NCBI RefSeq assembly: GCF_047511655.1
Contig: NC_133389.1
Span: 147,028,473 to 147,092,472, forward strand
Direction: 5' to 3'
DNA from: Castor canadensis
Taxonomy: Eukaryota > Chordata > Mammalia > Rodentia > Castoridae
Length of the DNA: 64,000 nt
Both the position numbers and the translations under genes were made by a program. Position 1 is the first letter of the stretch, and every line of letters begins with the position of its first letter. Below the pieces are notes generated by a model. That model was not told the origin of the DNA and did not search any database. It worked only from the letters and a program-made list of their open reading frames with translations. This document shows, piece by piece, positions 1,404-62,917 of this stretch.

Positions 1404-1419
1404 ACAACTATGACCATCC

Positions 1420-1663
1420 AGGCACTGAATGAAAATAACTTCAAGCCCAGATACTCTACTCAGCAAAACTATCATTCAAAATAGATGGAGCAATAAAAGT
1501 CTTCCATGATAAGCAGAAACTAAAACAATATGTGACCACAAAGCCACCACTACAAAAGATTCTGCAAGGGATTCTGCACACAGAAAATGAAACCCAACAT
1601 AACCATGAAAGGGCAGGCAGCACCAAACTACAGGAAAAGAAAAAGGAAGAAAGTAAACAGTAA
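1420..1663 (+). pseudogene. L1 ORF1 C-terminal fragment (copy 1)
   Basis: The fragment aligns to the last ~80 codons of the intact ORF1 in copies 2 and 3, beginning at the equivalent of ALNENNFNPR in the C-terminal domain and ending at a TAA at 1661-1663. The N-terminal coiled coil and RRM were lost by 5' truncation during insertion. An early small indel near 1451 breaks the frame at the junction. It cannot make a functional RNA-binding ORF1 protein. Confidence 0.85.
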
Positions 1664-1713
1664 CCTCAACTTAGGTACACACAATCAAACCTTCAAACAA
1701 CTAAGACAACTAA

Positions 1714-4700
1714 ATGACAGGAATCACCACATACCTATCAGTACTAACACTTAATGTTAACGGACATAATTCACCCATCAAAAGGCACCGTTTGACAAAA
1801 TGGATTAAAAAGGAAGATCCAACAATTTGTTGCTTACAGGAGACCCATCTCACCAACAGAAATAAGCATAGGCTTAGGATGAAAGGCTGGAAGAAGATTT
1901 ACCAAGCCAATGGCCCCCGAAAACAGGCAGGAGTTAGCAATACTTATCTCTGACAAAGTAGACTTCAAACCTACATTGATCAAACGAGATAAAGAAGGAC
2001 ATTCCATACTAATAAAAGGGGAAATAACCAAAAGGAAATAATAATTATCAACCTATATGCACCTAATGTCAACACACCCAATTTCATCAAACATACCCTG
2101 AAAGACCTAAAAGCATGTATTAACTACAACACAGTGGTTGTGGGAGACTTTAACATCCCATTATCATTAATAGATAGGTCATCCAAACAAAAAATCAATA
2201 AAGAAATCCAAGATCTAAAATACACAATAGATCAAATGGACCTACTTGATGTCTACAGAACATTTCATCCAACTTCTACACAATATACATTCTTCTCAGC
2301 AGCCCATGGAACTTTCTCCAAAACAGATCATATCCTAGGGCACAAAGCAAGCCTCAGCAAATATAAAAAAATAGAAATTATACCATGCATACTATCTGAT
2401 CACTATGCAATAAAACTAGAACTCAACAACAAAGTAAAGACAAAAAACATGCAAACAGCTGGAAACTGAATAACTCATTACTTAATGAACAATGGGTCAT
2501 TGATGAAATAAAAGAGGAAATTAAAAAGTTCTTGGAAGTCAATGATAATGAAAACACAACCTACCAGAACCTATGGGACACAGCAAAAGCAGTCCTGAGA
2601 GGAAAGTTTATAGCCATGAGTGCATATATTAAAAAGACTGAAAGATCCCAAATCAATGACCTAATGATATATCTCAAACACCTAGAAAAACAAGAACAAG
2701 GAAATCCCAAAACAAATAGAAGGAGAGAAATAATAAAAATAAGAGATGAAATCAACGAAATAGAAACCAAAAAAACCATACAAAGAATTAATGAAACAAA
2801 AAGTTGGTTCTTTGAAAAAAATAAACAAGAGAGACAGACCCCTGGCAAACTTGACTATAATGAGGAGAGAAAAAACACAAATTAGTAGAATCAGGAATGC
2901 AAAAGGGGAGATAACAACAAACACCATGGAAGTCCAGGAAATCATCAGAGACTACTTCAAGAACCTATATTCAAATAAATTTGAATATCTTAAAGAAATG
3001 GACAGATTTCTAGATACATATGATCATCCAAAACTGAACCAAGAGGAAATTAATCACCTGAATAGACCTATAACACAAAATGAAATTGAAACAGCATAAA
3101 GAGTCTCCCCAAAAAGAAAAGTCCAGGACCTGATGGATTCTCTGCTGAATTCTATCAGACCTTTAAAGAAGAACTGATACCAACCCTCCTTAAACTGTTC
3201 CACGAAATAGAAAGGGAAGGAAAACTGCCTAACACTTTTTATGAAGCCAGTATTATACTTATCCCAAAACCAGGCAAAGACACCTGTAAAAAGGAGAACT
3301 ATAGGCCAATCTCTTTAATGAACATTGACGCAAAAATTCTCAACAACATAATGGCAAACCAAATTCAACAACACATCAAAAAGATTATTCACCACAACCA
3401 AGTAGGCTTCAACCCAGGAATGCAGGGGTGGTCAATAAACGTAATAAACCACATTAACAGAAGCAAAGACAAAAACAACTTGATCATCTCAATAGATGCA
3501 GAAAAAGCCTTTGATAAGATCCAACACCATTTCTTTATAAAAGCTCTAAGAAAACTAGGAATAGAAGGAAAGTACCTCAACATTATAAAAGCCATATATG
3601 ACAAACCTACAGCCATTCCCTCTAAAAATCAGGAACCAGACAAGGATGCCCACTATCTCCACTCCTATTCAACATAGTACTGGAATTCCTAGCCAGAGCA
3701 ATTAGGCAAGAAGAAGGAATAAAAGGAATACAATAGATAAAGAAACTGTCAAAATATCCTTATTTGCAGACGACATGATCCTATACCTTAAAGACCCAAA
3801 AAACTCTACTCAGAAGCTCCTAGACACCATCAATAGCTACAGCAAGGTAGCCGGATATAAAACCAACATCGAAATCATTAGCATTTCTATACACTAATAA
3901 TGAACAAACTGAAAAAGAATATATGAAAACAATTCCATTTATAATAGCCTCAAAAAAAATCAAATACTTAGGTGTAAACCTAACAAAAGATGTGATGACC
4001 TCTACAAGGAAAACTATAAACTTCTGAAGAAAGAGACTGAGGAAGACTATAGAAAGTGGAGAGATTTCCCATGCTCATGGATTGGTAGAATCAACATAGT
4101 AAAAATGTCTATACTCCCAAAAGTAATCTACATGTTTAATGCAATTCCTATCAAAATCCCAATGACATTCATTAAAGAGGTTGAAAAATCTACCGTTAAA
4201 TTTATATGGAAACACAAGAGGCCACGAATGGCCAAGGCAATACTCAGTCAAAAGAACAATGCAGGAGGTATCACGATACCCGACTTCAAACTATATTACA
4301 AAGCAATAACAATAAAAACAGCATGGTACTGGCACAAAAACAGACATGAAGATCAGTGGAACAGAACAGAGGACCCAGATATGAAGCCACACAACTATAA
4401 CTAACTTGTCTTTGACAAAGGAGCTAAAAATATACGATGGAGAAATAGCAGCCTCTTCAACAAAAACTGCTGGGAAAACTGGTTAGCAGTCTGCAAAACA
4501 CTGAAACTAGATCCATGTATATCACCCTATACCAAGATTAACTCAAAATGGATCAAGGATCTTAGTATCAGACCACAAACTCTAAAGTTGATACAGGAAA
4601 GAGTAGGAAATACTTGGAGTTAGTAGGTATAGGTAAGAACTTTCTCAATGGAACCCCAGCAGCACAGCAACTAAGAGATAGCATAGATAAATGGGACCTC

Positions 4701-5490
4701 ATAAAACTAAAAAGCTTGTGCTCATCAAAAGAAATGGTCTCTAAACTGAGGAGAACACCCACAGAGTGGGAGAAAATATTTGCCAGCTACACATCAGACA
4801 AAGGACTGATAACCAGAATATATAGGGAACTTAAAAAACTAAATTCTCCCAAAACTAATGAACCAATAAAGAAATGGGCAAGTGAACTAAACAGAACTTT
4901 CTCAAAAGAAGAAATTCAAATGGCCAAAAAACGTATGAAAAAATGCTCACCATCTCTAGCAATAAAGGAAATGCAAATTAAAACCACACTAAGATTCCAC
5001 CTCACCCCTGTTAGAATAGCCATCATCAGCAACACCACCAACAACAGGTGTTGGTGAGGATGCAGGGAAAAAGGAACCCTCTTACACTGCTGGTGGGAAT
5101 GTAAACTAGTATAACCACTCTGGAAAAAAAACTTGGAGGCTACTTAAAAAGCTAAACATTGATCTACCATTTGATCCAGCAATACCACTCTTGGGGATGT
5201 ACCCAAAAGATTGTGACACAGGTTACTCCAGAGGTACCTGCACACCCATGTTTATTGCAGCACTATTCACAATAGCCAAGTTATGGAAACAGCCAAGATG
5301 CCCCACTACTGACGAATGGATCAAAAAAATGTGGTATCTATACACAATGGAATTTTATGCAGCCATGAAGAAGAACGAAATGTTATCATTTGCTGGTAAA
5401 TGGATGGAATTGGAGAACATCATTCTAAGTGAGGTTAGCCTGGCCCAAAAGACCAAAAATCGTATGTTCTCCCTCATATGTGGACATTAG
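1714..5490 (+). pseudogene. L1 ORF2 pseudogene (endonuclease-reverse transcriptase, copy 1)
   Basis: This corresponds to the whole ORF2 (1272 codons in copy 2). It begins [17 protein letters not shown] with the endonuclease motifs LNVNG and QETHL near residues 13 and 43, and GDFN near 2143. A one-base insertion near 1936 ends the first frame. Later fragments cover the linker, the RT domain (SLFADD equivalent near 3768) and the Cys-rich C-terminus near 5040-5100. Between 3611 and 4001 it carries a 32-nt deletion and several 1-2 nt indels that are also present in copy 3. At 5052 the CWRGC motif is interrupted by a stop. A dead copy; no product is expected. Confidence 0.92.
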
Positions 5491-5999
5491 ATCAAGGGCA
5501 AACACAACAAGGGGATTGAACTTTGATCACAAGATAAAAGCGAGAGCACACAAGGGAGATATGAGGATAGGTAAGACACCTAAAAAATTAACTAGCATTT
5601 ATTGCCCTTAACGCAGAGAAACTAAAGCAGATACCTTAAAAGCAACTGAGGCCAATAGGAAAAGGGGACCAGGAACTAGAGAAAAGGTTAGATCAAAAAG
5701 AATTAACCTAGAAGGTAACACACATGCACAGGAAATCAATGTCAGTCAAATCCCTGTATAGCTATCCTTATCTCAACCAGCAAAAACGCTTGTTCCTTCC
5801 TATTATTGCTTATACTCTCTCTTCAACAAAATTAGAGATAAGGCAAAACAGTTTCTGCCAGGTGTCCAGGGGGTGGGGGGGAGAGGGAGGGGGCAGAGTG
5901 GGTGGTAAGGGAGGGGGTGGGGGTAGTGGGGAGAAATGACCCAAGCATTGTATGCACATATGAATAATAAAAAAACAAAATAAATAAAAATAAAAATAA
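5491..5999 (+). other. L1 3' UTR with G-rich tract (copy 1)
   Basis: This is the L1 3' untranslated region. It contains a dense polypurine/G-run tract at about 5868-5936 with many runs of 3 or more G, which has G-quadruplex potential and is a usual L1 3' UTR feature. It ends in 'gcacatatgaataataaa' and an A/AAAT-rich tail. Short ORFs here are not conserved genes. Confidence 0.85.
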
Positions 6000-6012
6000 A
6001 CAACTAAGACCA

Positions 6013-29012: not shown

Positions 29013-29509
29013 TATATTTTTTTTTCATTTTTCTTTTATTATTCATATGTGCATACAAGGCTTGGTTTATTTCTCCCCCCTGCCCCCACCCCCTCCCTTA
29101 CCACCCACTCCACTCCCTCCCACTCCCCCCCTCAACACCCAGCAGAAACTATTTTGCCCTTATCTCTAATTTTGTTGTAGAGAGAGTATAAGCAATAATA
29201 GGAAGGAACAAGGGGTTTTGCTGGTTGAGATAAGGATAGCTATACAGGGCATTGACTCACATTGATTTCCTGTGCGTGGGTGTTACCTTCTAGGTTAATT
29301 CTTTTTAATCTAACCTTTTCTCTAGTTCCTGGTCCCCTTTTCCTATTGGCCTCAGTTGCTTTAAGGTATCTGCTTTAGTTTCTCTGCATTAAGGGCAACA
29401 AATGCTAGCTAGTTTTTTAGGTGTCTTACCTATCCTCACCCCTCCCTTGTGTGCTCTCGCTTTTATCATGTGCTCATAGTCCAATCCCCTTGTTGTGTTT
29501 GCCCTTGAT

Positions 29510-32500
29510 CTAATGTCCACATATGAGGGAGAACATACGATTTTTGGTCTTTTGAGCCAGGCTAACCTCACTCAGAATGATGTTCTCCAATTCCATCCAT
29601 TTACCAGCGAATGATAAAATTTCGTTCTTCTTCATGGCTGCATAAAATTCCATTGTGTATAGATACCACATTTTCTTAATCCATTCGTCAGTGGTGGGGC
29701 ATCTTGGCTGTTTCCATAACTTGGCTATTGTGAATAGTGCCGCAATAAACATGGATGTGCAGGTGCCTCTGGAGTAACAGTCTTTTGGGTATATCCCCAA
29801 GAGTGGTATTGCTGGATCAAATGGTAGATCGATGTCCAGCTTTTTAAGTAGCCTCCAAATTTTTTTCCAGAGTGGTTGTACTAGTCTACATTCCCACCAA
29901 CAGTGTAAGAGGGTTCCTTTTTCCCCACATCCTCGCCAACACCTGTTGTTGGTGGTGTTGCTGATGATGGCTATTCTAACAGGGGTGAGGTGGAATCTTA
30001 GTGTGGTTTTAATTTGCATTTCCTTTATTGCTAGAGATGGTGAGCATTTTTTCATGTGTTTTCTGGCCATTTGAATTTCTTCTTTTGAGAAAGTTCTGTT
30101 TAGTTCTCTTGCCCATTTCTTTATTGGTTCATTAGTTTTGGGAGAATTTAGTTTTTTAAGTTCCCTGTATATTCTGGTTATCAGTCCTTTGTCTGATGTA
30201 TAGTTGGCAAATATTTTCTCCCACTCTGTGGGTGTTCTCTTCAGTTTAGAGACCATTTCTTTTGATGAACAGAAGCTTTTTAGTTTTATGAGGTCCCATT
30301 TATCTATGCTATCTCTTAGTTGCTGTGCTGCTGGGGTTTCATTGAGAAAGTTCTTACCTATACCTACTAACTCCAGAGTATTTCCTACTCTTTCTTGTAT
30401 CAACTTAAGAGTTTGGGGTCTGATATTAAGATCCTTGATCCATTTTGAGTTAATCTTGGTATAGGGTGATATACATGGATCTAGTTTCAGTTTTTTGCAG
30501 ACTGCTAACCAGTTTTCCCAGCAGTTTTTGTTGAAGAGGCTGCTATTTCTCCATCGTATATTTTTAGCTCCTTTGTCAAAGATAAGTTGCTTATAGTTGT
30601 GTGGCTTCATATCTGGATCCTCTATTCTGTTCCACTGGTCTTCATGTCTGTTTTTGTGCCAGTACCATGCTGTTTTTATTATTATTGCTTTTTAATATAG
30701 TTTGAAGTCAGGTATTGTGATACCTCCTGCATTGTTCTTTTGACTGAGTATTGCCTTGGCTATTCGTGGCCTCTTGTGTTTCCATATAAATTTAACAGTA
30801 GATTTTTCAATCTCTTTGATGAATGTCATTGGAATTTTGATGGGAATTGCATTAAACATGTAGATTACTTTTGGGAGTATAGACATTTTTACTATGTTGA
30901 TTCTACCAATCCATGAGCATGGGAGATCTCTCCACTTTCTATAGTCTTCCTCAATCTCTTTCTTCAGAAGTGTATAGTTTTCCTTGTAGAGGTCTTTCAC
31001 ATCTTTTGTTAGGTTTACACCTAGGTATTTGATTTTTTTTGAGGCTATTGTAAATGGAATTGTTTTCATACATTCTTTTTCCGTTTGCTCATTGTTAGTG
31101 TATAGAAATGCTAATGATTTTTCTATGTTGATTTTATATCCTGCTACCTTGCTATAGCTATTGATGATGTCTAGAAGCTTCTGAGTAGAGTTTTTTGGGT
31201 CTTTAAGGTATAGGATCATGTCGTCTGCAAATAGGGATATTTTGACAGTTTCTTTACCTATTTGTATTCCTTTTATTCCTTCTTCTTGCCTAATTGCTCT
31301 GGCTAGGAATTCCAGTACTATGTTGAATAGGAGTGGAGATAGTGGGCATCCTTGTCTGGTTCCTGATTTAAGAGGGAATGGTTTTAATTTTTCTCCGTTA
31401 AGTATAATGCTGGCTGTAGGTTTGTCATATATGGCTTTTATAATGTTGAGGAACTTTCCTTCTATTCCTAGTTTTCTTAGAGCTTTTATCATGAAATGAT
31501 GTTGGATCTTATCAAAGGCTTTTTCTGCATCTATTGAGATGATCAAGTGGTTTTTGTCTTTGCTTCTGTTAATGTGGTTTATTACGTTTATTGATTTTCG
31601 TATGTTGAACCACCCCTGCATCCCTGGGATGAAGCCTACCTGGTCGTGGTGAATAATCTTTTTGATGTGTTGCTGAATTCGATTTGCCATTATTTTGTTG
31701 AGGATTTTTGCATCAATGTTCATTAAGGAGATTGGCCTATAGTTCTCCTTTTTGGAGGTGTCTTTGCCTGGTTTTGGGATAAGTGTAATAGTGGCTTCAT
31801 AAAATGTGTTTGGCAGTTTTCCTTCCCTTTCTATTTCATGGAACAGTTTAAGGAGGGTTGGTATCAGTTCTTCTTTAAAGGTCTGATAGAATTCAGCAGA
31901 GAATCCATCTGGTCCTGGACTTTTCTTTTTGGGGAGACTCTTGATTGCTGCTTCAATTTCATTTTGTGTTATAGGTCTATTCAGGTGATTAATTTCCTCT
32001 TGGTTCAGTTTTGGATGATCATATGTATCTAGAAATCTGTCCATTTCTTTTAGATTTTCAAATTTATTTGAATATAGGTTCTCAAAGTAGTCTCTGATGA
32101 TTTCCTGGACTTCCATGGTGTTTGTTGTTATCTCCCCTTTTGCATTCCTGATTCTACTAATTTGGGTTTTTTCTCTCCTCATTTTAGTCAGGTTTGCCAG
32201 GGGTCTATCGATCTTGTTTATTTTTTCAAAGAACCAACTTTTTGTTTCATTAATTCTTTGTATGGTTTTTTTGGTTTCTATTTCGTTGATTTCAGCTCTT
32301 ATTTTTATTATTTCTCTCCTTCTATTTGTTTTGGGATTTGCTTGTTCTTGTTTTTCTAGGAGTTTGAGATGTATCATTAGGTCATTGATTTGGGATCTTT
32401 CAATCTTTTTAATATATGCACTCATGGCTATAAACTTTCCTCTCAAGACTGCCTTAGCTGTGTCCCATAGGTTCCGGTAGGTTGTGTTTTCATTTTCATT

Positions 32501-33328
32501 GACTTCTAGGAACTTTTTAATTTCCTCTTTTATTGCATCGATGATCCATTCTTCATTAAGTAATGAGTTATTTAGTTTCCAGCTGTTTGCATGTTTTTTG
32601 TCTTTACTTTTGTTGTTGAGTTCTACTTTTACTGCATTGTGGTCAGATAGTATGCATGGTATTATTTCTATTTTCTTATATTTGCTGAGGCTTGCTTTGT
32701 GCCCTAGGATATGATCTATTTTGGAGAAGGTTCCATGGGCTGCTGAGAAGAATGTATATTGTGTAGAGGTTGGATGAAATGTTCTGTAGACATCTACTAG
32801 GTCCACTTGATCTATTGCATATTTTAGATCTTGGATTTCTTTATTGAGTTTTTGTTTGGATGACCTATCTATTGATGATAATGGAGTGTTAAAGTCTCCC
32901 ACAACCACTGTGTTGGCATTTATATATGCTTTTAGGTCTTTCAGGGTATGTTTGATGAAATTGGGTGCGTTGACATTGGGTGCGTACAGATTGATGATTA
33001 TTATTTCCTTTTGGTCTATTTCCCCTTTTATTAGTATGGAATGTCCTTCTTTATCTCGTTTGATCAATGTAGGTTTGAAGTCTACTTTGTCAGAGATAAG
33101 TATTGCTACTCCTGCTTGTTTTCGGGGGCCATTGGCTTGGTAAATCTTCTTCCAGCCTTTCATCCTAAGCATATGCTTATTTCTGTTGGTGAGATGAGTC
33201 TCCTGTAAGCAACAAATTGTTGGATCTTCTTTTTTAATCCATTTTGTCAAACGGTGTCTTTTGATGGGTGAATTAAGTCCATTAACATTAAGTGTTAGTA
33301 CTGATAGGTATGTGGTGATTCCTGCCAT
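29510..33328 (-). pseudogene. L1 ORF2 (EN-RT), one nonsense codon
   Basis: This ORF encodes the L1 endonuclease-reverse transcriptase that nicks target DNA and primes reverse transcription. It is 1272 codons from [11 protein letters not shown] to the stop, close to the usual ~1275. The order is EN domain (LNVNG at 13-17, QETHL with E43, GDFN near 145, SDHN near 230), RT domain ([17 protein letters not shown] near residue 700) and Cys-rich C-terminus ([18 protein letters not shown]). The only visible lesion is a TAC-to-TAA change at 30692-30694 (codon 879), which leaves an 878-residue product with EN and RT but no C-terminal domain. The frame reopens at once. It starts 50 nt after ORF1. Confidence 0.95.
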
Positions 33329-33378
33329 TTAGTTATCTTAGTTGTTTGAAGGTTTGATTGTGTGTACCTAACTTGATG

Positions 33379-34581
33379 TTACTCTCTACTGTCTTGCTTT
33401 TTCTTATCCTGTGGTTTGGTGCTGCCTGCCTTTTCATGGTTAAGTTGGGTGTCACTTTCTGTGTGCAGGATCCCTTGCAGAATCTTTTGTAATGGTGGCT
33501 TTGTGGTCACATATTGTTTTAGTTTCTGCTTATCATGGAAGACTTTTATTGCTCCATCTATTTTGAATGATAGCTTTGCTGGGTAGAGTATCCTGGGGTT
33601 GAAGTTATTTTCATTCAGTGCCCGGAAGATCTCACCCCACGCTCTTCTTGCTTTTAATGTTTCTGTTGAGAAGTCTGCTGTGATTTTGATGGGTTTACCT
33701 TTGTATGTTACTTGTTTTTTCTCTCTTGCAGCCTTCAATATTCTTTCCTTAGTTTCTGAACTTGTTGTTTTAATGATGATATGTCGTGGAGTAGTTCTAT
33801 TTTGATCTGGTCTGTTTGGTGTCCTGGAGGCCTCTTGCATTTGTATGGGAATATCTTTCTCTAGATTTGGGAAATTTTCCGTTATTATTTTGTTGAATAT
33901 ATTACTCATTCCCTTCGCTTGCACCTCTTCTCCTTCTTCGATGCCCATGATTCTCAAGTTTGGTCTTTTGATGGAGTCAGTGAGTTCTTGCATTTTCTTT
34001 TCACAGGTCTTGAGTTGTTTAATTAGTAGTTCTTCAGTTTTTCCTTTAATTACCATTTCATCTTCAAGTTCTGAGATTCTGTCTTCTGTTTGTTCTATTC
34101 TGCTGGATTGGCCTTCCGTTTTGTTTTGCAGTTCTGTTTCGTTCTTTTTTCTGAGGTTTTCCATATCCTGGCTGTTTTCTTCTTTATTGTTGTCTATTTT
34201 TGTCCTGAGTTCGTTTATCCATTTATTCATTGTGTTCTCTCTTTCATTTTGGTGTTTATACAGTGCTTCTATGGTTTCCTTTATTTCTTCTTTTGCTTTT
34301 TCAAATTCTCTATTTTTATTGTCTTGGAATTTCTTGAGTGTCTCCTGTACATTTTGGTTGACCCTATCCAGTATCATCTCTATAAAATTCTCATTGAGTA
34401 CTTGTAGTATGTCTTCTTTTAAATTATTCTTGTAGGCTTCATTGGGTCCTTTGGCATAGTTTATCTTCATTTTGTTGGAGTCTGGCTCTGAGTTTCTGTT
34501 CTCTTCATTCCCCTCTGGTTCCTGTACTAATTTTTTGCTGTGGGGAAACTGGTTTCCTTGTTTTTTCTGTCTTCCTGTCAT
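33379..34581 (-). CDS. L1 ORF1 protein (RNA-binding chaperone)
   Basis: ORF1p coats L1 RNA as trimers and acts as a nucleic-acid chaperone in the L1 ribonucleoprotein. I place the start at MTGRQKKQGNQ (ATG at 34581-34579), giving 400 residues, because basic N-termini of this kind are usual. Order: basic N-terminus; coiled coil (about residues 45-190, heptads rich in E, K and N); RRM beginning near RPNLRIMGIEEGEE; C-terminal domain with ITADFSTETLKARR and FNPRILYPAKLSF. The frame is open for 60 further codons upstream (to 34761) with a hydrophobic reading that I regard as untranslated. It differs from copy 3 at about a dozen residues and has one extra Gln. Confidence 0.93.
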   Translation of the reverse strand: MTGRQKKQGNQFPHSKKLVQEPEGNEENRNSEPDSNKMKINYAKGPNEAYKNNLKEDILQVLNENFIEMILDRVNQNVQETLKKFQDNKNREFEKAKEEIKETIEALYKHQNERENTMNKWINELRTKIDNNKEENSQDMENLRKKNETELQNKTEGQSSRIEQTEDRISELEDEMVIKGKTEELLIKQLKTCEKKMQELTDSIKRPNLRIMGIEEGEEVQAKGMSNIFNKIITENFPNLEKDIPIQMQEASRTPNRPDQNRTTPRHIIIKTTSSETKERILKAAREKKQVTYKGKPIKITADFSTETLKARRAWGEIFRALNENNFNPRILYPAKLSFKIDGAIKVFHDKQKLKQYVTTKPPLQKILQGILHTESDTQLNHEKAGSTKPQDKKKQDSRE

Positions 34582-35052
34582 TGTCCTTGGTGTTGTTACT
34601 GTCCCTGTACTGTGTGTAATTAAGTATTTTCTAGCTTGTAATAATAACAATGGTAATATTGAGAATGGAAGAGTGAGCTGAGATGGAAAGCAAGAAGTTA
34701 AAGAAAAGGGGAAAACAAATATACAGACAAGAGGGAGAAAGCAGAACAAGGTATCAGACAAGAGAGTTTCAAAGGTATAAACAGGGAGTGTTAGTGTACT
34801 AATCGACAGTAAGCTGGTCTGCGTCTTCCCAAGCCATATGGGCGCCGGCCACTGGCGGCCCGGGGGCCTCCTCGGTTCTCCGTTTAACGTGAAGTGGAGA
34901 TTCTCTGCGCCGGCTGGAGATGTGGAGGGGTCAAAGTTATGCCTTTTCTCGGTGATTATGCCTGCAAAGTGTGTCTCCAGCGTCTCTCCAAGATTTCACT
35001 ATAGGAGACTCGCTTTCTGCTTCCTACCTCTAGCCGCCATCTTGGAATTCTC
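34582..35052 (-). other. L1 5' UTR lacking the 985-nt intron (copy 2)
   Basis: On the minus strand, exon-1-like sequence (35050 to 34814, 237 nt) ending in gaccag is joined directly to cttactgtcg (34813 onward), which continues to ORF1. In copy 3 the same two edges flank 55495-56479, which begins GTGAGC and ends TTCAG. The YY1-type motif ccaagatggcggc at the 5' end is kept. Confidence 0.9.
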
Positions 35053-35337
35053 TATATTTTTAAATATATTACAATTTTCCTGCCCTTTTGAAGGAAATGT
35101 GCCAAGTATAAATAATTCATTGTTTTTCCAGTAGCTGTGATTTATGTACTATGCTGTGATTCCCTGATTCACTTAGGAACTTGTTGTCGTGGTTTTACCC
35201 TTAAACTGAATAGACTTAGACTACTATAGTTTTCTTGTTATCTTAAGTAACTTTTTCCCTATCTGAAGATTATTTTGTTTTTAATAGATAATTTTCACAA
35301 ACTTTATTCATTCATTATTCAAAAAAGTTAACGACTG

Positions 35338-45984: not shown

Positions 45985-46650
45985 AATAGCAGTACCTCTT
46001 TATCTGAGGGACACATTCCAAGACCTTCAGTAGATGCCTCAAACTGTGGATTGTACTGAACCTTTTTCTACACTACTTATTTTTTTGCTATGCATACCTA
46101 TGATAAAATTTAAGTTATAAATTAGGCAAGAGATTAATAAGAATAAAAATGAAATAGGGCAATTAAGATAACATACTGTAATATGTGAATGCTATCTCTC
46201 TCATTCTCTCAAAATATTATACTTTCATCTTTTCACTTAAAGGAAACACTGAATGACATATCCAAATTGGCAACATTACTACTCTTGTTCTTTGGGCCCA
46301 TTATTAGATAACACAAGGGTTATATGAGCACAAGCCCTGTGATAACAAGACTCTCAATTCAATAATGGCAGGTGGCACATACACATGCAGCACAGATATG
46401 CTGGGCAAAGGGATAATTCACATCCAGGCAGGGTGGAGTAGGATTACCCAAGCTTTTATTTTATTTATATTATATTATTTAAAATATGGAATGCTTCACA
46501 AATTTGCGTGTGCATGGGAGCCATTCTAATCTTCTCTGTATCATTCCAATTTTAGTGTATGTGCTGCCCAAGTGAACAGTGAAGATTTTATAAACCCACA
46601 AGAAAAAAAACTACAGATAAAGCAGGGGGGGGGGAGGGAGCTATAGTATT
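45985..46650 (+). mobile_element. Tigger-like DNA transposon, host of a U6 pseudogene
   Basis: The left part has 'gacacattccaagaccttca', 'gatgcctcaaactgtggatt', 'acctatgataaaatttaagt' and 'gcccattattagataacaca', in the order of a mammalian Tigger element. Its right end ('aactacagataaagcagggg...agctatagta') appears after the U6 insertion at 46482-46580. No transposase frame remains. Confidence 0.65.
46482..46580 (-). pseudogene. U6 snRNA pseudogene
   Basis: On the minus strand it reads from a U6-like 5' end (+ strand 'atgtgctgccca', reversed) through the segment equal to '...acagagaagatta...' to the U6 3' end ending in atatttta. Most of the U6 sequence is recognisable, with several substitutions and a deletion of about 8-9 nt in the stretch before the 3' stem (+ strand 'gcgtgtgcatgggagcc'). 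No functional promoter elements were checked. It is likely an L1-mobilised retrocopy. Confidence 0.85.
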
Positions 46651-54854: not shown

Positions 54855-55251
54855 TAGCCTCAAAAAAAATAAATAACATACATGAAGGGGAAATCAATGA
54901 ACTTGAAAACAAAACAATAGAGAAAAATCAAACAAAACCAAAAAGGTGGCACTTTTTTAAAAAAATCTATGAAATTGATGAGCCTCTAGTCAGACTTACC
55001 AAGAAAACAAAAGATAGAAGACAAATATTATCAATATTAGGAATAAAATGAGGACTATCATGACCTGACCCACACAGATTACTTTCAATCTAGGAATACT
55101 TTTAGTAAGGGAATACTATAAACAAATTCATGTGCATAAATTCAACAATTCAGATAAAATGGATCAATCCTTAAAAGTTATAAAGTACATAACCTTACTA
55201 AAACCAAGCAATTGAACAAATCATGAAGTCCTATATTAATTAAAGAAATTA

Positions 55252-56711
55252 GATGGAATTCCAAGATGGCGGCTAGAGGTAGGAAGCAGAAAGCGACCCT
55301 CCTATAGTGAAATCTTGGAGACACGCTGGAGACACACTTTGCAGGCATAATCACCGAGAAAAGGCATAACTTTGACTCCTCCACATCTCCAGCCGGCGCA
55401 GAGAATCTCCACTTCACGTTAAACAGAGAACCGAGGAGGGCCCCTGGGGCCGCCAGTGGTCGGCGCCCATACGGCTTGGGAAGACGCGGACCAGGTGAGC
55501 TCTGCGGTACCGCGGTAGCCCCACAGACAAGCCTGGGCCAGAGCACCATAGCCCCCTGGACAGACTGACCTTCACCCGGGAAAAAAAAGAGAAACTGAGT
55601 ACTAAGCAATAAGAACAGTTAAGACACGCTGGAAAGAGAGTGGGGCGCCCTGAGCGCTGAAGATTGGGGGAAGGGAATCCTTCCCGGGACTGTAAATAAA
55701 CAAGCTGGGCGGGCCAGAGAGCCTCTGGTGGGAGCGGGGCGCGCACCCAGCAACCAGGAGCGGGGAAGCTTGTGAGAGGAGGGAAGACCCACTTCCCATA
55801 TGAACTGTAAACAAACACGCAGGCCTGACAATGCGGGGCAGTGTCACCTTTCCCAGTGCTTGGAAAGGGGAAAGCCTGTAGCAGAGGCCCCCCGCACAGG
55901 AGAACTCTGAGCAAACAAAGCCTGTGGGACCAGGTGAGTGCTAAGCTCACCCCAGAGATCTGCATAAATAACGCCGCCAGCTACAGGCTGAGAGCGGCAG
56001 GCAGGCAAGCCACAGTTGCAGATACCACTCTCAGAACTGCATCCAGACGCTTTTTTTTCTTTTTCTCCCTACCTTTGATGAGAGAACAACCGAATTACAC
56101 CTGCAAGCCAAAAAACTTACTGAAACTGTATTGCATTTGAACTGGGGACACTTGGTGGGGCTTTTTTTTTTTTTTTTCTTCTGTGTGTGTGTGAGTGTAG
56201 TTTTGTTCTACTTTATGCATCCCCTTTGATGAGACAACTACAGAACAACATCTGAGGCACCAACTCCACGACTGGAGATTGAGACGGACATCCAAATTAT
56301 TAAGACTGAAATTGCATTGCATATAAACTTGGAAGTTTTTTGGTTTTTTTTTTTTAATTTTCTATTTTCCATTTTATTTTAATTCATTTTTATATATAGA
56401 TATTACTTTCATATACTTATTTTTTAGTTTTTTATCTTTGATTTTCAATCCTCTCTCTGTCTCTCTATTGTCTGTTCAGCTTACTGTCGATTAGTACACT
56501 AACACTCCCTGTTTATACCTTTGAAACTCTCTTGTCTGATACCTTGTTCTGCTTTCTCCCTCTTGTCTGTATATTTGTTTTCCCCTTTTCTTTAACTTCT
56601 TGCTTTCCATCTCAGCTCACTCTTCCATTCTCAATATTACCATTGTTATTATTACAAGCTAGAAAATACTTAATTACACACAGTACAGAGACAGTAACAA
56701 CACCAAGGACA
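55252..56711 (+). promoter_or_regulatory. L1 5' UTR / internal promoter (copy 3)
   Basis: About 1.46 kb. The 5' end carries ccaagatggcggc (55261-55273), which resembles the YY1 site at the start of mammalian L1 promoters. The first ~700 bp are GC-rich and the rest is T-rich. No tandem monomers of the mouse type are seen, but a diverged direct repeat exists: 'cctttgatgagag' at about 56075 and 'cctttgatgagac' at 56223, each followed by 'gaacaac', then 'attgcat'. Antisense frames of 143 and 183 codons are open here. Confidence 0.85.
55495..56479 (+). other. Intron-like segment in the L1 5' UTR
   Basis: It starts CAG|GTGAGC and ends after a long pyrimidine-rich run in GTTCAG|C (56478-56479 = AG). 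Exactly this 985-nt segment is absent from copy 2. The flanking sequence shares a CAG at both edges, so the join is ambiguous by up to 3 nt, but the GT-AG alignment fits splicing. Removal by an RNA-level splice is an inference. Confidence 0.8.
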
Positions 56712-57911
56712 ATGACGGGAAGACAGAAAAAACAAGGGAACCAGTTTCCCCACAGCAAAAAATTAGTACAGGAACCAGAGGGGAATGAAGAGAACAGAAA
56801 CTCAGATCCAGACTCCAACAAAATGAAGATAAACTATGCCAAAGGACCCAATGAAGCCCACAAGAATAATTTAAAAGAAGACATACTACAAGTACTCAAT
56901 GAGAATTTTATAGAGATGATACTGGATAGGGTAAACCAAAATGTACAGGAGACACTCAAGAAATTCCAAGACAATAAAAATAGAGAATTTGAAAAAGCAA
57001 AAGAAGAAATAAAGGAAACCATAGAAGCACTGTATAAACACCAAAGTGAAAGAGAGAACACAATGAATAAATGGATAAATGAACTCAGGACAAAAATAGA
57101 CAACAATAAAGAAGAAAACAGCCAGGATATGGAAAACCTTAGAAAAAAGAACGAAACAGAACTGCAAAACAAAACAGAAGGCCAATCCAGCAGAATAGAA
57201 CAAACAGAAGACAGAATCTCAGAACTTGAAGATGAAATGGTAATTAAAGGAAAAACCGAAGAACTATTAATTAAACTCAAGACCTGTGAAAAGAAAATGC
57301 AAGAACTCACTGACTCCATCAAAAGACCAAACTTGAGAATCACGGGCATCGAAGAAGGAGAAGAGGTGCAAGCGAAGGGAATGAGTAATATATTCAACAA
57401 AATAATAATGGAAAATTTCCCAAATCTAGAGAAAGATATTCCCATACAGATGCAAGAGGCCTCCAGGACACCAAACAGACCAGATCAAAATAGAACTACT
57501 CCACGACACATCATCATTAAAACAACAAGTTCAGAAACTAAGGAAAGAATAATGAAGGCTGTAAGAGAGAAAAAACAAGTAACATACAAAGGTAAACCCA
57601 TCAAAATCACAGCAGACTTCTCAACAGAAACATTAAAAGCAAGAAGAGTGTGGGGTGAGAACTTCCGGGCACTGAATGAAAATAACTTCAACCCCAGGAT
57701 ACTCTACCCAGCAAAGCTATCATTCAAAATAGATGGAGCAATAAAAGTCTTCCATGATAAGCAGAAACTAAAACAATATGTGACCACAAAGCCACCATTA
57801 CAAAAGATTCTGCAAGGGATCCTGCACACAGAAAGTGACACCCAACTTAACCATGAAAAGGCAGGCAGCACCAAACCACAGGATAAGAAAAAGCAAGACA
57901 GTAGAGAGTAA
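56712..57911 (+). CDS. L1 ORF1 protein (RNA-binding chaperone)
   Basis: Intact. I chose the ATG at 56712 (MTGRQKKQGNQ), giving 399 residues. The frame stays open 60 codons further up to 56532 with a hydrophobic reading, which I regard as 5' UTR. Order: basic N-terminus, coiled coil (about residues 45-190), RRM from RPNLRITGIEEGEE, C-terminal domain with ITADFSTETLKARR and FNPRILYPAKLSF. It lacks one Gln present in copy 2 (ELLIK-LKTC) and has Val and Met/Thr substitutions. Family role: trimeric RNA chaperone of the L1 particle. Confidence 0.93.
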   Translation: MTGRQKKQGNQFPHSKKLVQEPEGNEENRNSDPDSNKMKINYAKGPNEAHKNNLKEDILQVLNENFIEMILDRVNQNVQETLKKFQDNKNREFEKAKEEIKETIEALYKHQSERENTMNKWINELRTKIDNNKEENSQDMENLRKKNETELQNKTEGQSSRIEQTEDRISELEDEMVIKGKTEELLIKLKTCEKKMQELTDSIKRPNLRITGIEEGEEVQAKGMSNIFNKIIMENFPNLEKDIPIQMQEASRTPNRPDQNRTTPRHIIIKTTSSETKERIMKAVREKKQVTYKGKPIKITADFSTETLKARRVWGENFRALNENNFNPRILYPAKLSFKIDGAIKVFHDKQKLKQYVTTKPPLQKILQGILHTESDTQLNHEKAGSTKPQDKKKQDSRE

Positions 57912-57961
57912 CATCAAGTTAGGTACACACAATCAAACCTTCAAACAACTAAGATAACTAA

Positions 57962-60900
57962 ATGGCAGGAATCACCACATACCTATCAGTACTAACACTT
58001 AATGTTAATGGACTTAATTCACCCATCAAAAGACACCGTTTGACAAAATGGATTAAAAAAGAAGATCCAACAATTTATTGCTTACAGGAGACTCATCTCA
58101 CCGACAGAAATAAGCATATGCTTAGGATGAAAGGCTGGACGAAGATTTACCAAGCCAACGGCCCCCGAAAACAAGCAGGAGTAGCAATACTTATCTCTGA
58201 CAAAGTAGACTTCAAACCTACATTGATCAAACGAGATAAAGAAGGACATTCCATACTAATAAAAGGGGAAATAGACCAAAAGGAAATAATAATCATCAAT
58301 CTGTACGCACCCAATGTCAACGCACCCAATTTCATCAAACATACCCTGAAAGACCTAAAAGCATATATAAACGCCAACACAGTGGTTGTGGGAGACTTTA
58401 ACACTCCATTATCATCAATAGATAGGTCATCCAAACAAAAACTCAATAAAGAAATCCAAGATCTAAAATATGCAATAGATCAAGTGGACCTAGTAGATGT
58501 CTACAGAACATTTCATCCAACCTCTACACAATATACATTCTTCTCAGCAGCCCATGGAACCTTCTCCAAAATAGATCATATCCTAGGGCACAAAGCAAGC
58601 CTCAGCAAATATAAGAAAAGAGAAATAATACCGTGCATACTATCTGACCACAATGCAGTAAAAGTAGAACTCAACAACAAAAGTAAAGACAAAAAACATG
58701 CAAACAGCTGGAAACTAAATAACTCATTACTTAATGAAGAATGGATCATCGATGCAATAAAAGAGGAAATTAAAAAGTTCCTGGAAGTCAATGAAAATGA
58801 AAACACAACCTACCGGAACCTATGGGACACAGCTAAGGCAGTCTTGAGAGGAAAGTTTATAGCCATGAGTGCATATATTAAAAAGATTGAAAGATCCCAA
58901 ATCAATGACCTAATGATACATCTCAAACTCCTAGAAAAACAAGAACAAGCAAATCCCAAAACAAATAGAAGGAGAGAAATAATAAAAATAAGAGATGAAA
59001 TCAACAAAATAGAAACCAAAAAAACCATACAAAGAATTAATGAAACAAAAGTTGGTTCTTTGAAAAAATAAACAAGAGAGACAGACCCCTGGCAAACCTG
59101 ACTAAAATGAGGAGAGAAAAAACCCAAACTAGTAGAATCAGGAATGCAAAAGGGGAGATAACAACAAACACCATGGAAGTCCAGGAAATCATCAGAGACT
59201 ACTTTGAGAACCTATATTCAAATAAATTTGAAAATCTAAAAGAAATGGACAGATTTCTAGATACATATGATCATCCAAAACTGAACCAAGAGGAAATTAA
59301 TCACCTGAATAGACCTATAACACAAAATGAAATTGAAGCAGCAATCAAGAGTCGCCCCAAAAAGAAAAGTCCAGGACCTGATGGATTCTCTGCTGAATTC
59401 TATCAGACCTTTAAAGAAGAACTGATACCAACCCTCCTTAAACTGTTCCATGAAATAGAAAGGGAAGGAAAACTGCCAAACACATTTTATGAAGCCACTA
59501 TTACACTTATCCCAAAACCAGGCAAAGACACCTCCAAAAAGGAGAACTATAGGCCAATCTCCTTAATGAACATTGATGCAAAAATCCTCAACAAAATAAT
59601 GGCAAATCGAATTCAGCAACACATCAAAAAGATTATTCACCACGACCAAGTAGGCTTCATCCCAGGGATGCAGGGGTGGTTCAACATACGAAAATCAATA
59701 AACGTAATAAACCACATTAACAGAAGCAAAGACAAAAACCACTTGATCATCTCAATAGATGCAGAAAAAGCCTTTGATAAGATCCAACATCATTTCATGA
59801 TAAAAGCTCTAAGAAAACTAGGAATAGAAGGAAAGTACCTCAACATTATAAAAGCCATATATGACAAACCTACAGCCATTCCCTCTAAAAATCAGGAACC
59901 AGACAAGGATGCCCACTATCTCCACTCCTATTCAACATAGTACTGGAATTCCTAGCCAGAGCAATTAGGCAAGAAGAAGGAATAAAAGGAATACAATAGG
60001 TAAAGAAACTGTCAAAATATCCTTATTTGCAGACGACATGATCCTATACCTTAAAGACCCAAAAAACTCTACTCAGAAGCTCCTAGACACCATCAATAGC
60101 TACAGCAAGGTAGCCGGATATAAAACCAACATCGAAATCATTAGCATTTCTATACACTAATAATGAACAAACTGAAAAAGAATATATGAAAACAATTCCA
60201 TTTATAATAGCCTCAAAAAAAATCAAATACTTAGGTGTAAACCTAACAAAAGATGTGATGACCTCTACAAGGAAAACTATAAACTTCTGAAGAAAGAGTC
60301 TGAGGAAGACTATAGAAAGTGGAGAGATTTCCCATGCTCATGGATTGGTAGAATCAACATAGTAAAAATGTCTATACTCCCAAAAGTAATCTACATGTTT
60401 AATGCAATTCCTATCAAAATCCCAATGACATTCATTAAAGAGGTTGAAAAATCTACCGTTAAATTTATATGGAAACAAAAGAGGCCACGAATGGCCAAGG
60501 CAATACTCAGTCAAAAGAACAATGCAGGAGGTATCACGATACCCGACTTCAAACTATATTACAAAGCAATAACAATAAAAACAGCATGGTACTGGCACAA
60601 AAACAGACATGAAGATCAGTGGAAAAGAATAGAGGGCCCAGATATGAAGCCACACAACTATGAGCAACTTATCTTTGACAAAGGAGCTAAAAATATACGA
60701 TGGAGAACTAGCAGCCTCTTCAACAAAAACTGCTGGGAAAACTGGTTAGCAGTCTGCAAAAAACTGAAACTAGATCCATGTATATCACCCTATACCAAGA
60801 TTAACTCAAAATGGATCAAGGATCTTAATATCAGACCCCAAACTCTTAAGTTGATACAAGAAAGAGTAGGAAATACTCTGGAGTTAGTAGGTATAGGTAA

Positions 60901-61741
60901 GAACTTTCTCAATGAAACCCCAGCAGCACAGCAACTAAGAGATAGCATAGATAAATGGGACCTCATAAAACTAAAAAGCTTCTGTTCATCAAAAGAAATG
61001 GTCTCTAAACTGAAGAGAACACCCACAGAGTGGGAGAAAATATTTGCCAACTATACATCAGACAAAGGACTGATAACCAGAATATACAGGGAACTTAAAA
61101 AACTAAATTCTCCCAAAACTAATGAACCAATAAAGAAATGGGCATGTGAACTCAACAGAACTTTCTCAAAAGAAGAAATTCAAATGGCCAGAAAACACAT
61201 GAAAAAATGCTCACCATCTCTAGCAATAAAGGAAATGCAAATTAAAACCACACTAAGATTCCACCTCACCCCTGTTAGAATAGCCATCATCAGAAACACC
61301 ACCAACAACAGGTGTTGGCGAGGATGCGGGGAAAAAGGAACCCTCTTACACTGTTGGTGGGAATGTAGACTAGTACAACCACTCTGGAAAAAAATTTGGA
61401 GGCTACTTAAAAAGCTGGACATCGATCTACCATTTGATCCAGCAATACCACTCTTGGGGATATACCCAAAAGACTGTTACTCCAGAGGCACCTGCACATC
61501 CATGTTTATTGCGGCACTATTCACAGTAGCCAAGTTATGGAAACAGCCAAGATGCCCCAGCACTGACAAATGGATTAAGAAAATGTGGTATCTATACACA
61601 GTGGCATTTTATGCAGCCATGAAGAACGAAATGTTATCATTCACTGGTATATGGATGGAACTGGAGAACATCATTCTGAGTGAGGTTAGCCTGGCCCAAA
61701 AGACCAAAAATCGTATGTTCTCCCTCATATGTGGACATTAG
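57962..61741 (+). pseudogene. L1 ORF2 pseudogene (EN-RT), mosaic
   Basis: It begins [17 protein letters not shown] with an intact EN domain (QETHL near residue 43, GDFN near 145). A one-base loss in an A-run near 59048 (4 As instead of 5) ends the first frame at 59071, so the first product would be 369 residues. A second open stretch (59107-59940) covers the RT start ([10 protein letters not shown]), then breaks at a 32-nt deletion near 59878. The frame is restored at 60368 because the indels sum to -36. The Cys-rich C-terminus ([18 protein letters not shown]) is kept. Not functional. Confidence 0.94.
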
Positions 61742-62261
61742 ATCAAGGGCAAACACAACAAGGGGATTGGACTATGAGCACATGATAAAAGCGAGAGCAC
61801 ACAAGGGAGGGGTGAGGATAGGTAAGACACCTAAAAAACTAGCTAGCATTTGTTGCCCTTAATGCAGAGAAACTAAAGCAGATACCTTAAAGCAACTGAG
61901 GCCAATAGGAAAAGGGGACCAGGAACTAGAGAAAAGGTTAGATCAAAAAGAATTAACCTAGAAGGTAACACCCACGCACAGGAAATCAATGTGAGTCAAT
62001 GCCCTGTATAGCTATCCTTATCTCAACCAGCAAAACCCCTTGTTCCTTCCTATTATTGCTTATACTCTCTCTACAACAAAATTAGAGATAAGGGCAAAAT
62101 AGTTTCTGCTGGGTATTGAGGGGGGGAGCGGGAGGGGGCGGAGTGGGTGGTAAGGGAGGGGGTGGGGGCAGGGGGGAGAAATAAACCAAGCCTTGTATGC
62201 ACATATGAATAATAAAAGAAAAATGAAAAAAAATAAAAAATAAAATAAAATAAAAATAAAA
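61742..62261 (+). other. L1 3' UTR with G-rich tract (copy 3)
   Basis: Contains a run of G-tracts at about 62119-62177 and ends with 'gcacatatgaataataaaag' and a long A-rich tail of AAAT units before the target duplication. Confidence 0.9.
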
Positions 62262-62917
62262 AAAGAAATTAAATTTGTAGTTAACAACCTCTTAATGAAA
62301 AATTCTAGGTTCATATGTTTCACTGGAAAATGCTAGAAGATATTTATTAAAGAAATAATACCAGTTCTATACAAACTATTTTAGAAAATACATGAGGAGA
62401 AAACACTTCCTAATGTATTTTATGAGGTTAGCATTATCCTAATACTAAAACCAGACATATTGAAAAAAAACAAAGACCAATGTTATAGACAAACATAGGT
62501 ACAAAAGTCTTCAACAAACTGTTAGCAAATCAAACTTAGGAGTAAATGAAAAAAAGAACACAGAATGATCATTCCAAGAATGCAAGGTTGGTTTGATTTT
62601 TGAAAAATCAGTGTAATTCTCAAGATTAGCAGCCTCAAGAAAAAAAAAATCATTTCAATATTATTCAGCAAATTCAAATGTCTTCACAGTAAAAACTCTT
62701 AGGGAACTTGGAGAGTATGGAAATTGCCTTAATCTGATAAAAAGACACTATAAAAATCCAGGAACAAAGCAACAGTCAGTGCACTAGTCAGTGCAACAAG
62801 CAAGAAAAATAAATTCATTCATATTGGGAGACAGAGAAAAAAAGAAAACCCCTCTATTTTCAGGTGACAGCATTGTTTATGTAGGAAATCCCAAAGAAAA
62901 TAAGAGATCAAAATACA

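What the first reader, a model, noticed from the sequence alone, without database searches (positions are those of the whole stretch)
34813..34814. Copy 2 is a retrotransposed, spliced L1 RNA (SpIRE-type)
Aligning copy 2 and copy 3 5' UTRs by eye, copy 2 joins exon-like sequence ending gaccag (34814, minus strand) directly to cttactgtcg (34813). In copy 3 the same edges enclose 55495-56479: CAG|GTGAGC ... pyrimidine tract ... GTTCAG|C. Outside the segment both copies match closely on both sides. Splicing of L1 5' UTRs and re-integration of the spliced RNA is known from human L1 (SpIREs); I do not know of one described for this rodent lineage. A deletion through the 3-bp CAG shared at the two edges is possible but less likely given full donor and acceptor signals.
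Basis: partly seen in the sequence, partly recalled or inferred. Interest (0 to 1): 0.75.

Follow-up and report, generated by a model that had tools for sequence, protein, structure and literature searches.

The report
Spliced LINE-1 copy, recurrent in genome
One of the jumping-gene (LINE-1) copies here was pasted into the genome from an RNA that had most likely been spliced first, and the same exact scar recurs in other copies of this genome, much as is already known for human LINE-1.

Summary
Copy 2 (about 29022-35052, minus strand) lacks exactly the 985 nt that copy 3 carries at 55495-56479 (CAG|GTGAGC ... GTTCAG|C) and matches it closely on both sides. Copy 2 has a full 5' end, an A tract, a modest 9-bp target-site repeat and an L1-endonuclease-like site. 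The window's own genome could be searched three times: the exact 21-base spliced junction occurs 162 times, the exact intron-exon 21-mer 4100 times. All 30 spliced loci read (copy 2 included) share one junction. Six of 6 intron-side copies read upstream hold the intron, older ones included, so loss is the derived state. A tree of 21 spliced and 9 unspliced rows rejects a single spliced clade (p-AU 4.9e-9); well-supported forks need at least 5 separate losses if loss is irreversible. One deletion inherited by a subfamily does not explain this; repeated splicing followed by retrotransposition does. Copy 2 is a SpIRE-type insertion: a new member of a known kind. No RNA data were available. Also seen: copy 3 carries a ~0.8-kb tract like copy 1 that disrupts its ORF2.

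The parts
34813..34814 (-). Spliced junction of copy 2, GACCAG|CTTACTGTCG
   Evidence: 162 exact 21-mers in the genome
29022..35052 (-). Copy 2: full-length L1 without the 5'UTR intron (its A tract blends with the target-site repeat at the low end)
34814..35052 (-). Exon-1 part of the copy 2 leader
34582..34813 (-). Exon-2 part of the copy 2 leader (232 nt before ORF1)
35053..35061 (-). 5' target-site repeat AAAAATATA, preceded by TT (L1-endonuclease-like site)
   Evidence: 63 of 20,000 random flanks match as well
29013..29021 (-). 3' target-site repeat AAAAATATA, five bases of it inside the A tract
33379..34581 (-). Copy 2 ORF1, 400 codons open, with stop
29510..33328 (-). Copy 2 ORF2, 1272 codons with one in-frame stop at codon 879
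55252..62261 (+). Copy 3: full-length L1 with the 5'UTR intron (3' limit set by the target-site repeat)
55495..56479 (+). The 985-nt intron, GTGAGC...GTTCAG, present in copy 3 and absent from copy 2
55242..55251 (+). Copy 3 5' target-site repeat AAAGAAATTA
62262..62271 (+). Copy 3 3' target-site repeat AAAGAAATTA
55934..55939 (+). Second, higher-scoring donor CAG|GTGAGT inside the intron, not used by copy 2
56616..56616 (+). First base after a second, higher-scoring acceptor in the exon-2 leader, not used by copy 2

Best explanation
Copy 2 is a retrotransposed copy of an L1 mRNA from which the spliceosome had removed a 985-nt intron lying wholly inside the 5'UTR. A full-length intron-bearing L1 is transcribed from its 5' end; rarely the RNA is spliced from CAG|GTGAGC to TTCAG|C; ORF1 and ORF2 are untouched, so the spliced mRNA can be translated, carried in cis and copied into a T-rich site by target-primed reverse transcription. 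This happened several times independently in this genome. Shown here: exact junction, splice signals, insertion marks, many copies with the junction, ancestral intron, no single spliced clade. Inferred: transcription from the 5' end, splicing in germ-line cells, cis mobilisation, weak promoter of the product.
For: Exact GT-AG junction that 5 of 12,421 homology-edged deletions would match. A yTnAy branch-like A 39 nt before the acceptor and no other AG within 53 nt of it. Full 5' end, A tract, target-site repeat. 162 exact junctions against 4100 intron-exon 21-mers, reversed-pattern controls 0. 30 of 30 spliced loci with the same junction; of 20 read in full, 14 have a target-site repeat of at least 10 bp, two of these almost only A. 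6 of 6 unspliced copies read upstream carry the intron. Spliced rows as one clade rejected: p-AU 1.0e-4 with 5 unspliced rows, 4.9e-9 with 9; at least 5 losses on starred forks, 15 on the tree as drawn, if loss is irreversible.
Against: No RNA evidence. The two edges share CAG, as a microhomology deletion would. Stronger splice sites in the same leader were not used. Six of 20 long loci gave no target-site repeat in my search. The 30 loci were picked by similarity to copy 2's spliced leader. L1 copies here exchange tracts, so gene conversion could have moved the gap between backgrounds and inflated the number of origins; the labels are mildly clustered on the tree (29 of 500 shuffles as low). 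Copy 2's exon-1 part differs from copy 3 more (9 of 233) than the rest.
Confidence: 0.92

Rival explanations
1. A single intron loss (by splicing or by deletion) founded an intronless L1 subfamily that then spread; copy 2 and the other junction copies are its descendants.
For: One junction in 30 of 30 loci; 162 copies; 4 of 21 spliced rows keep both ORFs open; 15 of 21 spliced rows sit in one starred clade of 17; two spliced rows pair with each other (L034 and L047, 92/86).
Against: One spliced clade is rejected (p-AU 4.9e-9; 1.0e-4); two unspliced rows lie inside that clade of 17, and spliced L042 pairs with unspliced L055 (99/92); no site is fixed between 30 spliced and 7 unspliced rows.
Confidence: 0.05
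2. Genomic deletion, or a jump of the reverse transcriptase, between the two CAG triplets, unrelated to splicing.
For: CAG is shared by both edges; a 32-bp gap next to repeated bases occurs in ORF2 of copies 1 and 3.
Against: 5 of 12,421 possible deletions with at least 3 bp of homology fall on sites this good, and the identical event would have to recur on several backgrounds.
Confidence: 0.02
3. The intronless form is ancestral and copy 3's segment is an insertion.
For: The window alone, with two full 5' ends, could not exclude it.
Against: 6 of 6 other unspliced copies read upstream hold the segment, older ones too; the deepest rows of the tree are unspliced (midpoint root); 4100 against 162 exact matches.
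Confidence: 0.01

Closest known systems
Human intra-5'UTR SpIREs (SpIRE97/622, SpIRE97/790), Larson et al. 2018, PMC5860796 (abstract, sections 7, 8, 23, part 1 of 2 of section 17, and passages read)
   Same: A GT-AG gap inside the 5'UTR, both ORFs spared, target-site repeats and A tract, a few percent of copies (116 of 6,609 there, 162 of 4,262 exact 21-mers here), several copies with one junction.
   Different: Another L1 lineage with its own 5'UTR; donor about 240 nt from the start instead of 97, gap 985 nt instead of 524; splicing and promoter loss were shown by experiment in human L1 and not here.
Mouse L1spa splice sites and 22 copies perhaps made by splicing, Belancio et al. 2006 (not held; seen only as cited in a passage of PMC9022269)
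   Same: Rodent L1, spliced within the 5'UTR, re-integrated copies suggested.
   Different: Mouse 5'UTRs are tandem monomers and the sites lie in monomers and tether; the leader here was not found to be repeated, though no dedicated repeat search was run on it.
SpIRE in RAP1GDS1 that regained expression from a host promoter, PMC13174262 (abstract and passages read)
   Same: A spliced L1 that was not a dead end, which bears on the spliced copies with open frames here.
   Different: A host promoter drives it; nothing of that kind was tested here.

Membership tests
LINE-1 (L1) retrotransposon | ORF1 with L1 RNA-binding domains and ORF2 with endonuclease and reverse transcriptase | tested here: met
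   Pfam PF02994, PF17490; PF03372, PF00078; best solved relatives are L1 ORF1p and ORF2p
SpIRE | Gap bounded by splice donor and acceptor of the parent 5'UTR | tested here: met
SpIRE | L1 insertion marks: 5' end, A tract, target-site repeats, endonuclease site | tested here: met
   copy 2: (9-bp repeat, partly in the A tract); 14 of 20 other spliced loci have at least 10 bp, two almost only A
SpIRE | Unspliced parent family in the same genome, intron ancestral | tested here: met
SpIRE | Recurrent independent insertions of the same spliced form | tested here: met
   gene conversion not excluded
SpIRE | Spliced L1 RNA exists in cells | not testable with these tools
   no RNA reads on hand
SpIRE | Reduced promoter activity of the spliced 5'UTR | not testable with these tools
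   needs a reporter assay
Intronless L1 subfamily from one founder | Spliced copies form one clade | tested here: not met
   p-AU 1.0e-4 and 4.9e-9

The most novel reading that the evidence does not exclude
In this L1 lineage splicing is not only an accident: it removes 5 of the 6 upstream ATGs of copy 3's leader and keeps the 5'-end CCAAGATGGCGGC motif and both ORFs, and some spliced copies (4 of 21 rows still have both frames open) remain transcribed and have seeded part of the 162 junction copies, so that SpIREs here are not dead ends.
Probability: 0.1. Interest if true: 0.6.

Novelty: new member of a known kind. Interest (0 to 1): 0.45.

Why it matters
It shows that splicing of the L1 5'UTR followed by re-integration, worked out in human L1, has left a comparable trace in another mammalian L1 lineage with different splice sites and at a similar low percentage. 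For human L1 the costly donor is thought to persist because it lies in a transcription-factor site (PMC5860796, section 17); a second lineage with a retained donor lets that idea be tested. The 21-base junction is a ready genome-wide marker for counting and dating such events.

Tried and rejected
Relatives in viral contigs (junction, acceptor, 3' end and 5' end patterns; ORF1 protein) and genome contigs: none found, as expected for a mammalian element. Rfam at gathering threshold listed one U6-like match. An open frame through the spliced leader in phase with ORF1 (138 codons in copy 2, 117 in copy 3 joined in silico; 14 and 22 of 5000 simulations reach that) was considered as a coding extension and set aside: 90 codons of it are open without splicing in copy 3, no ATG opens it, and the frame was noticed after the fact. 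One search's copy 2 leader was one base too long; one search corrects the frame count. The target-site search began at the wrong base and found none; one search replaces it. One search's tree held copy 1 and an over-long L047 row; replace it, with L047 cut short and copy 3's converted tract masked. Not obtained: a search for other junctions and a count of unspliced donors (sent repeatedly, never answered), second-donor junctions (sent, never answered), first donor to second acceptor (planned, never sent). Because the second donor also ends in GACCAG, the 162 may include second-donor junctions; the 30 loci read use the first. Literature: listings (15 of 162 shown; 15 of 74 shown) showed no paper on a SpIRE in this lineage; only open-licence papers are held, so this is weak.

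Full report
What is there. The window holds two L1 elements with full 5' ends, copy 2 (minus strand) and copy 3 (plus strand), and a 5'-truncated copy 1 at 1417-6000; older L1 pieces lie elsewhere (the 5'-end motif occurs twice). They are L1 by protein content: copy 2's ORF1 matches the two L1 ORF1p domains and its ORF2 the endonuclease and reverse transcriptase, and the best solved relatives are L1 ORF1p and ORF2p chains. Copy 2's ORF1 is open over 400 codons; its ORF2 spans 1272 codons with one stop at codon 879. That the host is a rodent rests on B1-like and tRNA-like SINE sequence that I recognised from memory; no call names the species.

The gap. Copies 2 and 3 align from their 5' ends into ORF1 with one large gap of 985 nt, copy 3 55495-56479. 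Its edges are CAG|GTGAGC and GTTCAG|C. A yTnAy branch-like A lies 39 nt before the acceptor, and the next AG upstream of the acceptor's own is 54 nt away. With splice-site tables recalled from memory, 5 of 965,355 breakpoint pairs in the leader are as good on both sides. Against a deletion that uses at least 3 bp of edge homology the figure is 5 of 12,421, or 9 and 13 of 12,421 with two looser cut-offs. Better-scoring sites were available and not used (donor 55934, acceptors 56616 and 55857).

Insertion marks. Copy 2 starts just 5' of GAATTCCAAGATGGCGGC, after TT|AAAAATATA, and AAAAATATA recurs at its 3' end; five of the nine bases blend with the A tract, so this repeat alone is modest evidence (63 of 20,000 random flanks do as well). 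Copy 3 has AAAGAAATTA on both sides (40 of 20,000).

The genome. The window lies in a 2.81-Gb assembly. A search with copy 2's leader across the junction scored 40 of 2600 first-look candidates; all 40 run across the junction at 97-100% identity. I read the best 30, one of which is copy 2 itself: all 30 show GACCAG|CTTACTGTC (27, L030, the loci of L002 and L021). Of the 20 that were fetched in full (the places of L002-L021), 14 have a target-site repeat of at least 10 bp, two of these almost only A, and 6 gave none by my search. Exact counts: spliced 21-mer 162, intron-exon 21-mer 4100, reversed-pattern controls 0: 162 of 4262, 3.8%. This denominator is imperfect: it counts copies truncated inside the intron and misses copies with a change in the 21 bases, and the 162 may include second-donor junctions.

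Direction. Six plus-strand places on contig C1 from the list were read upstream: all 6 hold the donor site and intron sequence, five with GTGAGC and one with GTGTGC. They are 94.4-98.3% identical to copy 3 over exon 2 and ORF1, and from donor to acceptor they measure about 990-1120 nt (in L051 BLAST did not join the last part of the intron). The intron is therefore the older state.

One event or many. Thirty spliced and 7 unspliced rows show no site fixed between the two forms. Over about 5.8 kb from the acceptor on, a tree of 21 spliced rows (20 loci and copy 2) and 9 unspliced rows needs 6 changes of label, 4 of them forced by starred forks; holding the spliced rows as one clade costs 172.9 log units, p-AU 4.9e-9. 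For 5 of the 9 unspliced rows the intron was seen; for the other 4 only its last bases up to the acceptor were fetched. If a lost intron cannot return, starred forks alone need 5 losses and the tree as drawn 15. With 5 unspliced rows the answer was the same in kind (123.6 log units, p-AU 1.0e-4). Over about 1410 bases one unspliced copy, L054, is only 2-3 differences from three spliced ones. Against this reading: labels are mildly clustered (29 of 500 shuffles as low), most forks are weak, sampling favoured relatives of copy 2, and gene conversion can move a gap.

How it works. Inferred chain: transcription from the 5' end of an intron-bearing L1, occasional splicing of the leader, translation of intact ORFs, re-integration in cis. 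The first steps rest on the sequence and on the human parallel (PMC5860796: abstract, sections 7, 8, 23, part 1 of section 17 and passages), where the products have weak promoters. In copy 3 the intron holds 23 of the 38 CpGs counted in the three leader parts and 5 of the 6 upstream ATGs. Four of 21 spliced rows keep ORF1 (400) and ORF2 (1272) open, as do 2 of 9 unspliced rows (L047's ORF2 could not be judged because its row was cut), so part of the spliced copies are recent.

Known or new. It works like a SpIRE and meets the features of one that can be read from sequence. RNA and promoter features were not testable. A mouse precedent exists through Belancio 2006, which I saw only as cited in PMC9022269. 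What is added is the lineage, its splice sites, the genome-wide count and the evidence for repeated origin.

Noticed in passing
59800-60640 (copy 3) against about 3537-4374 (copy 1): Copy 3 carries a tract of about 0.8 kb that matches copy 1 rather than copy 2, unlike its flanks: in the bin 60000-60499, 23 sites have copy 1 = copy 3, 2 have copy 1 = copy 2 and 1 has copy 2 = copy 3. It includes a shared 32-bp ORF2 deletion. Best read as gene conversion from a copy-1-like element into copy 3, which disrupted its reverse transcriptase frame.
   Followed up: partly
34582-35052 (-) and the copy 3 leader: The spliced leader has a long open frame in phase with ORF1 (138 codons in copy 2) without an ATG; 14 of 5000 simulated leaders do as well.
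   Followed up: partly
46480-46577 (-): U6 snRNA-like sequence (62.5 bits) followed by a short A-rich tail, likely a retrocopy; not joined to an L1 in the stretch read.
   Followed up: partly
L051, L052, L056: Older unspliced copies have about 140-155 extra bases inside the intron relative to copy 3, so the 5'UTR changed length between subfamilies.
   Followed up: no
L042 (spliced) and L052-L055 (unspliced), L054: Near pairs of spliced and unspliced copies: L042's row pairs with L055 (99/92), and L054 is 2-3 differences from three spliced copies over about 1410 bases; useful for dating splicing events.
   Followed up: no
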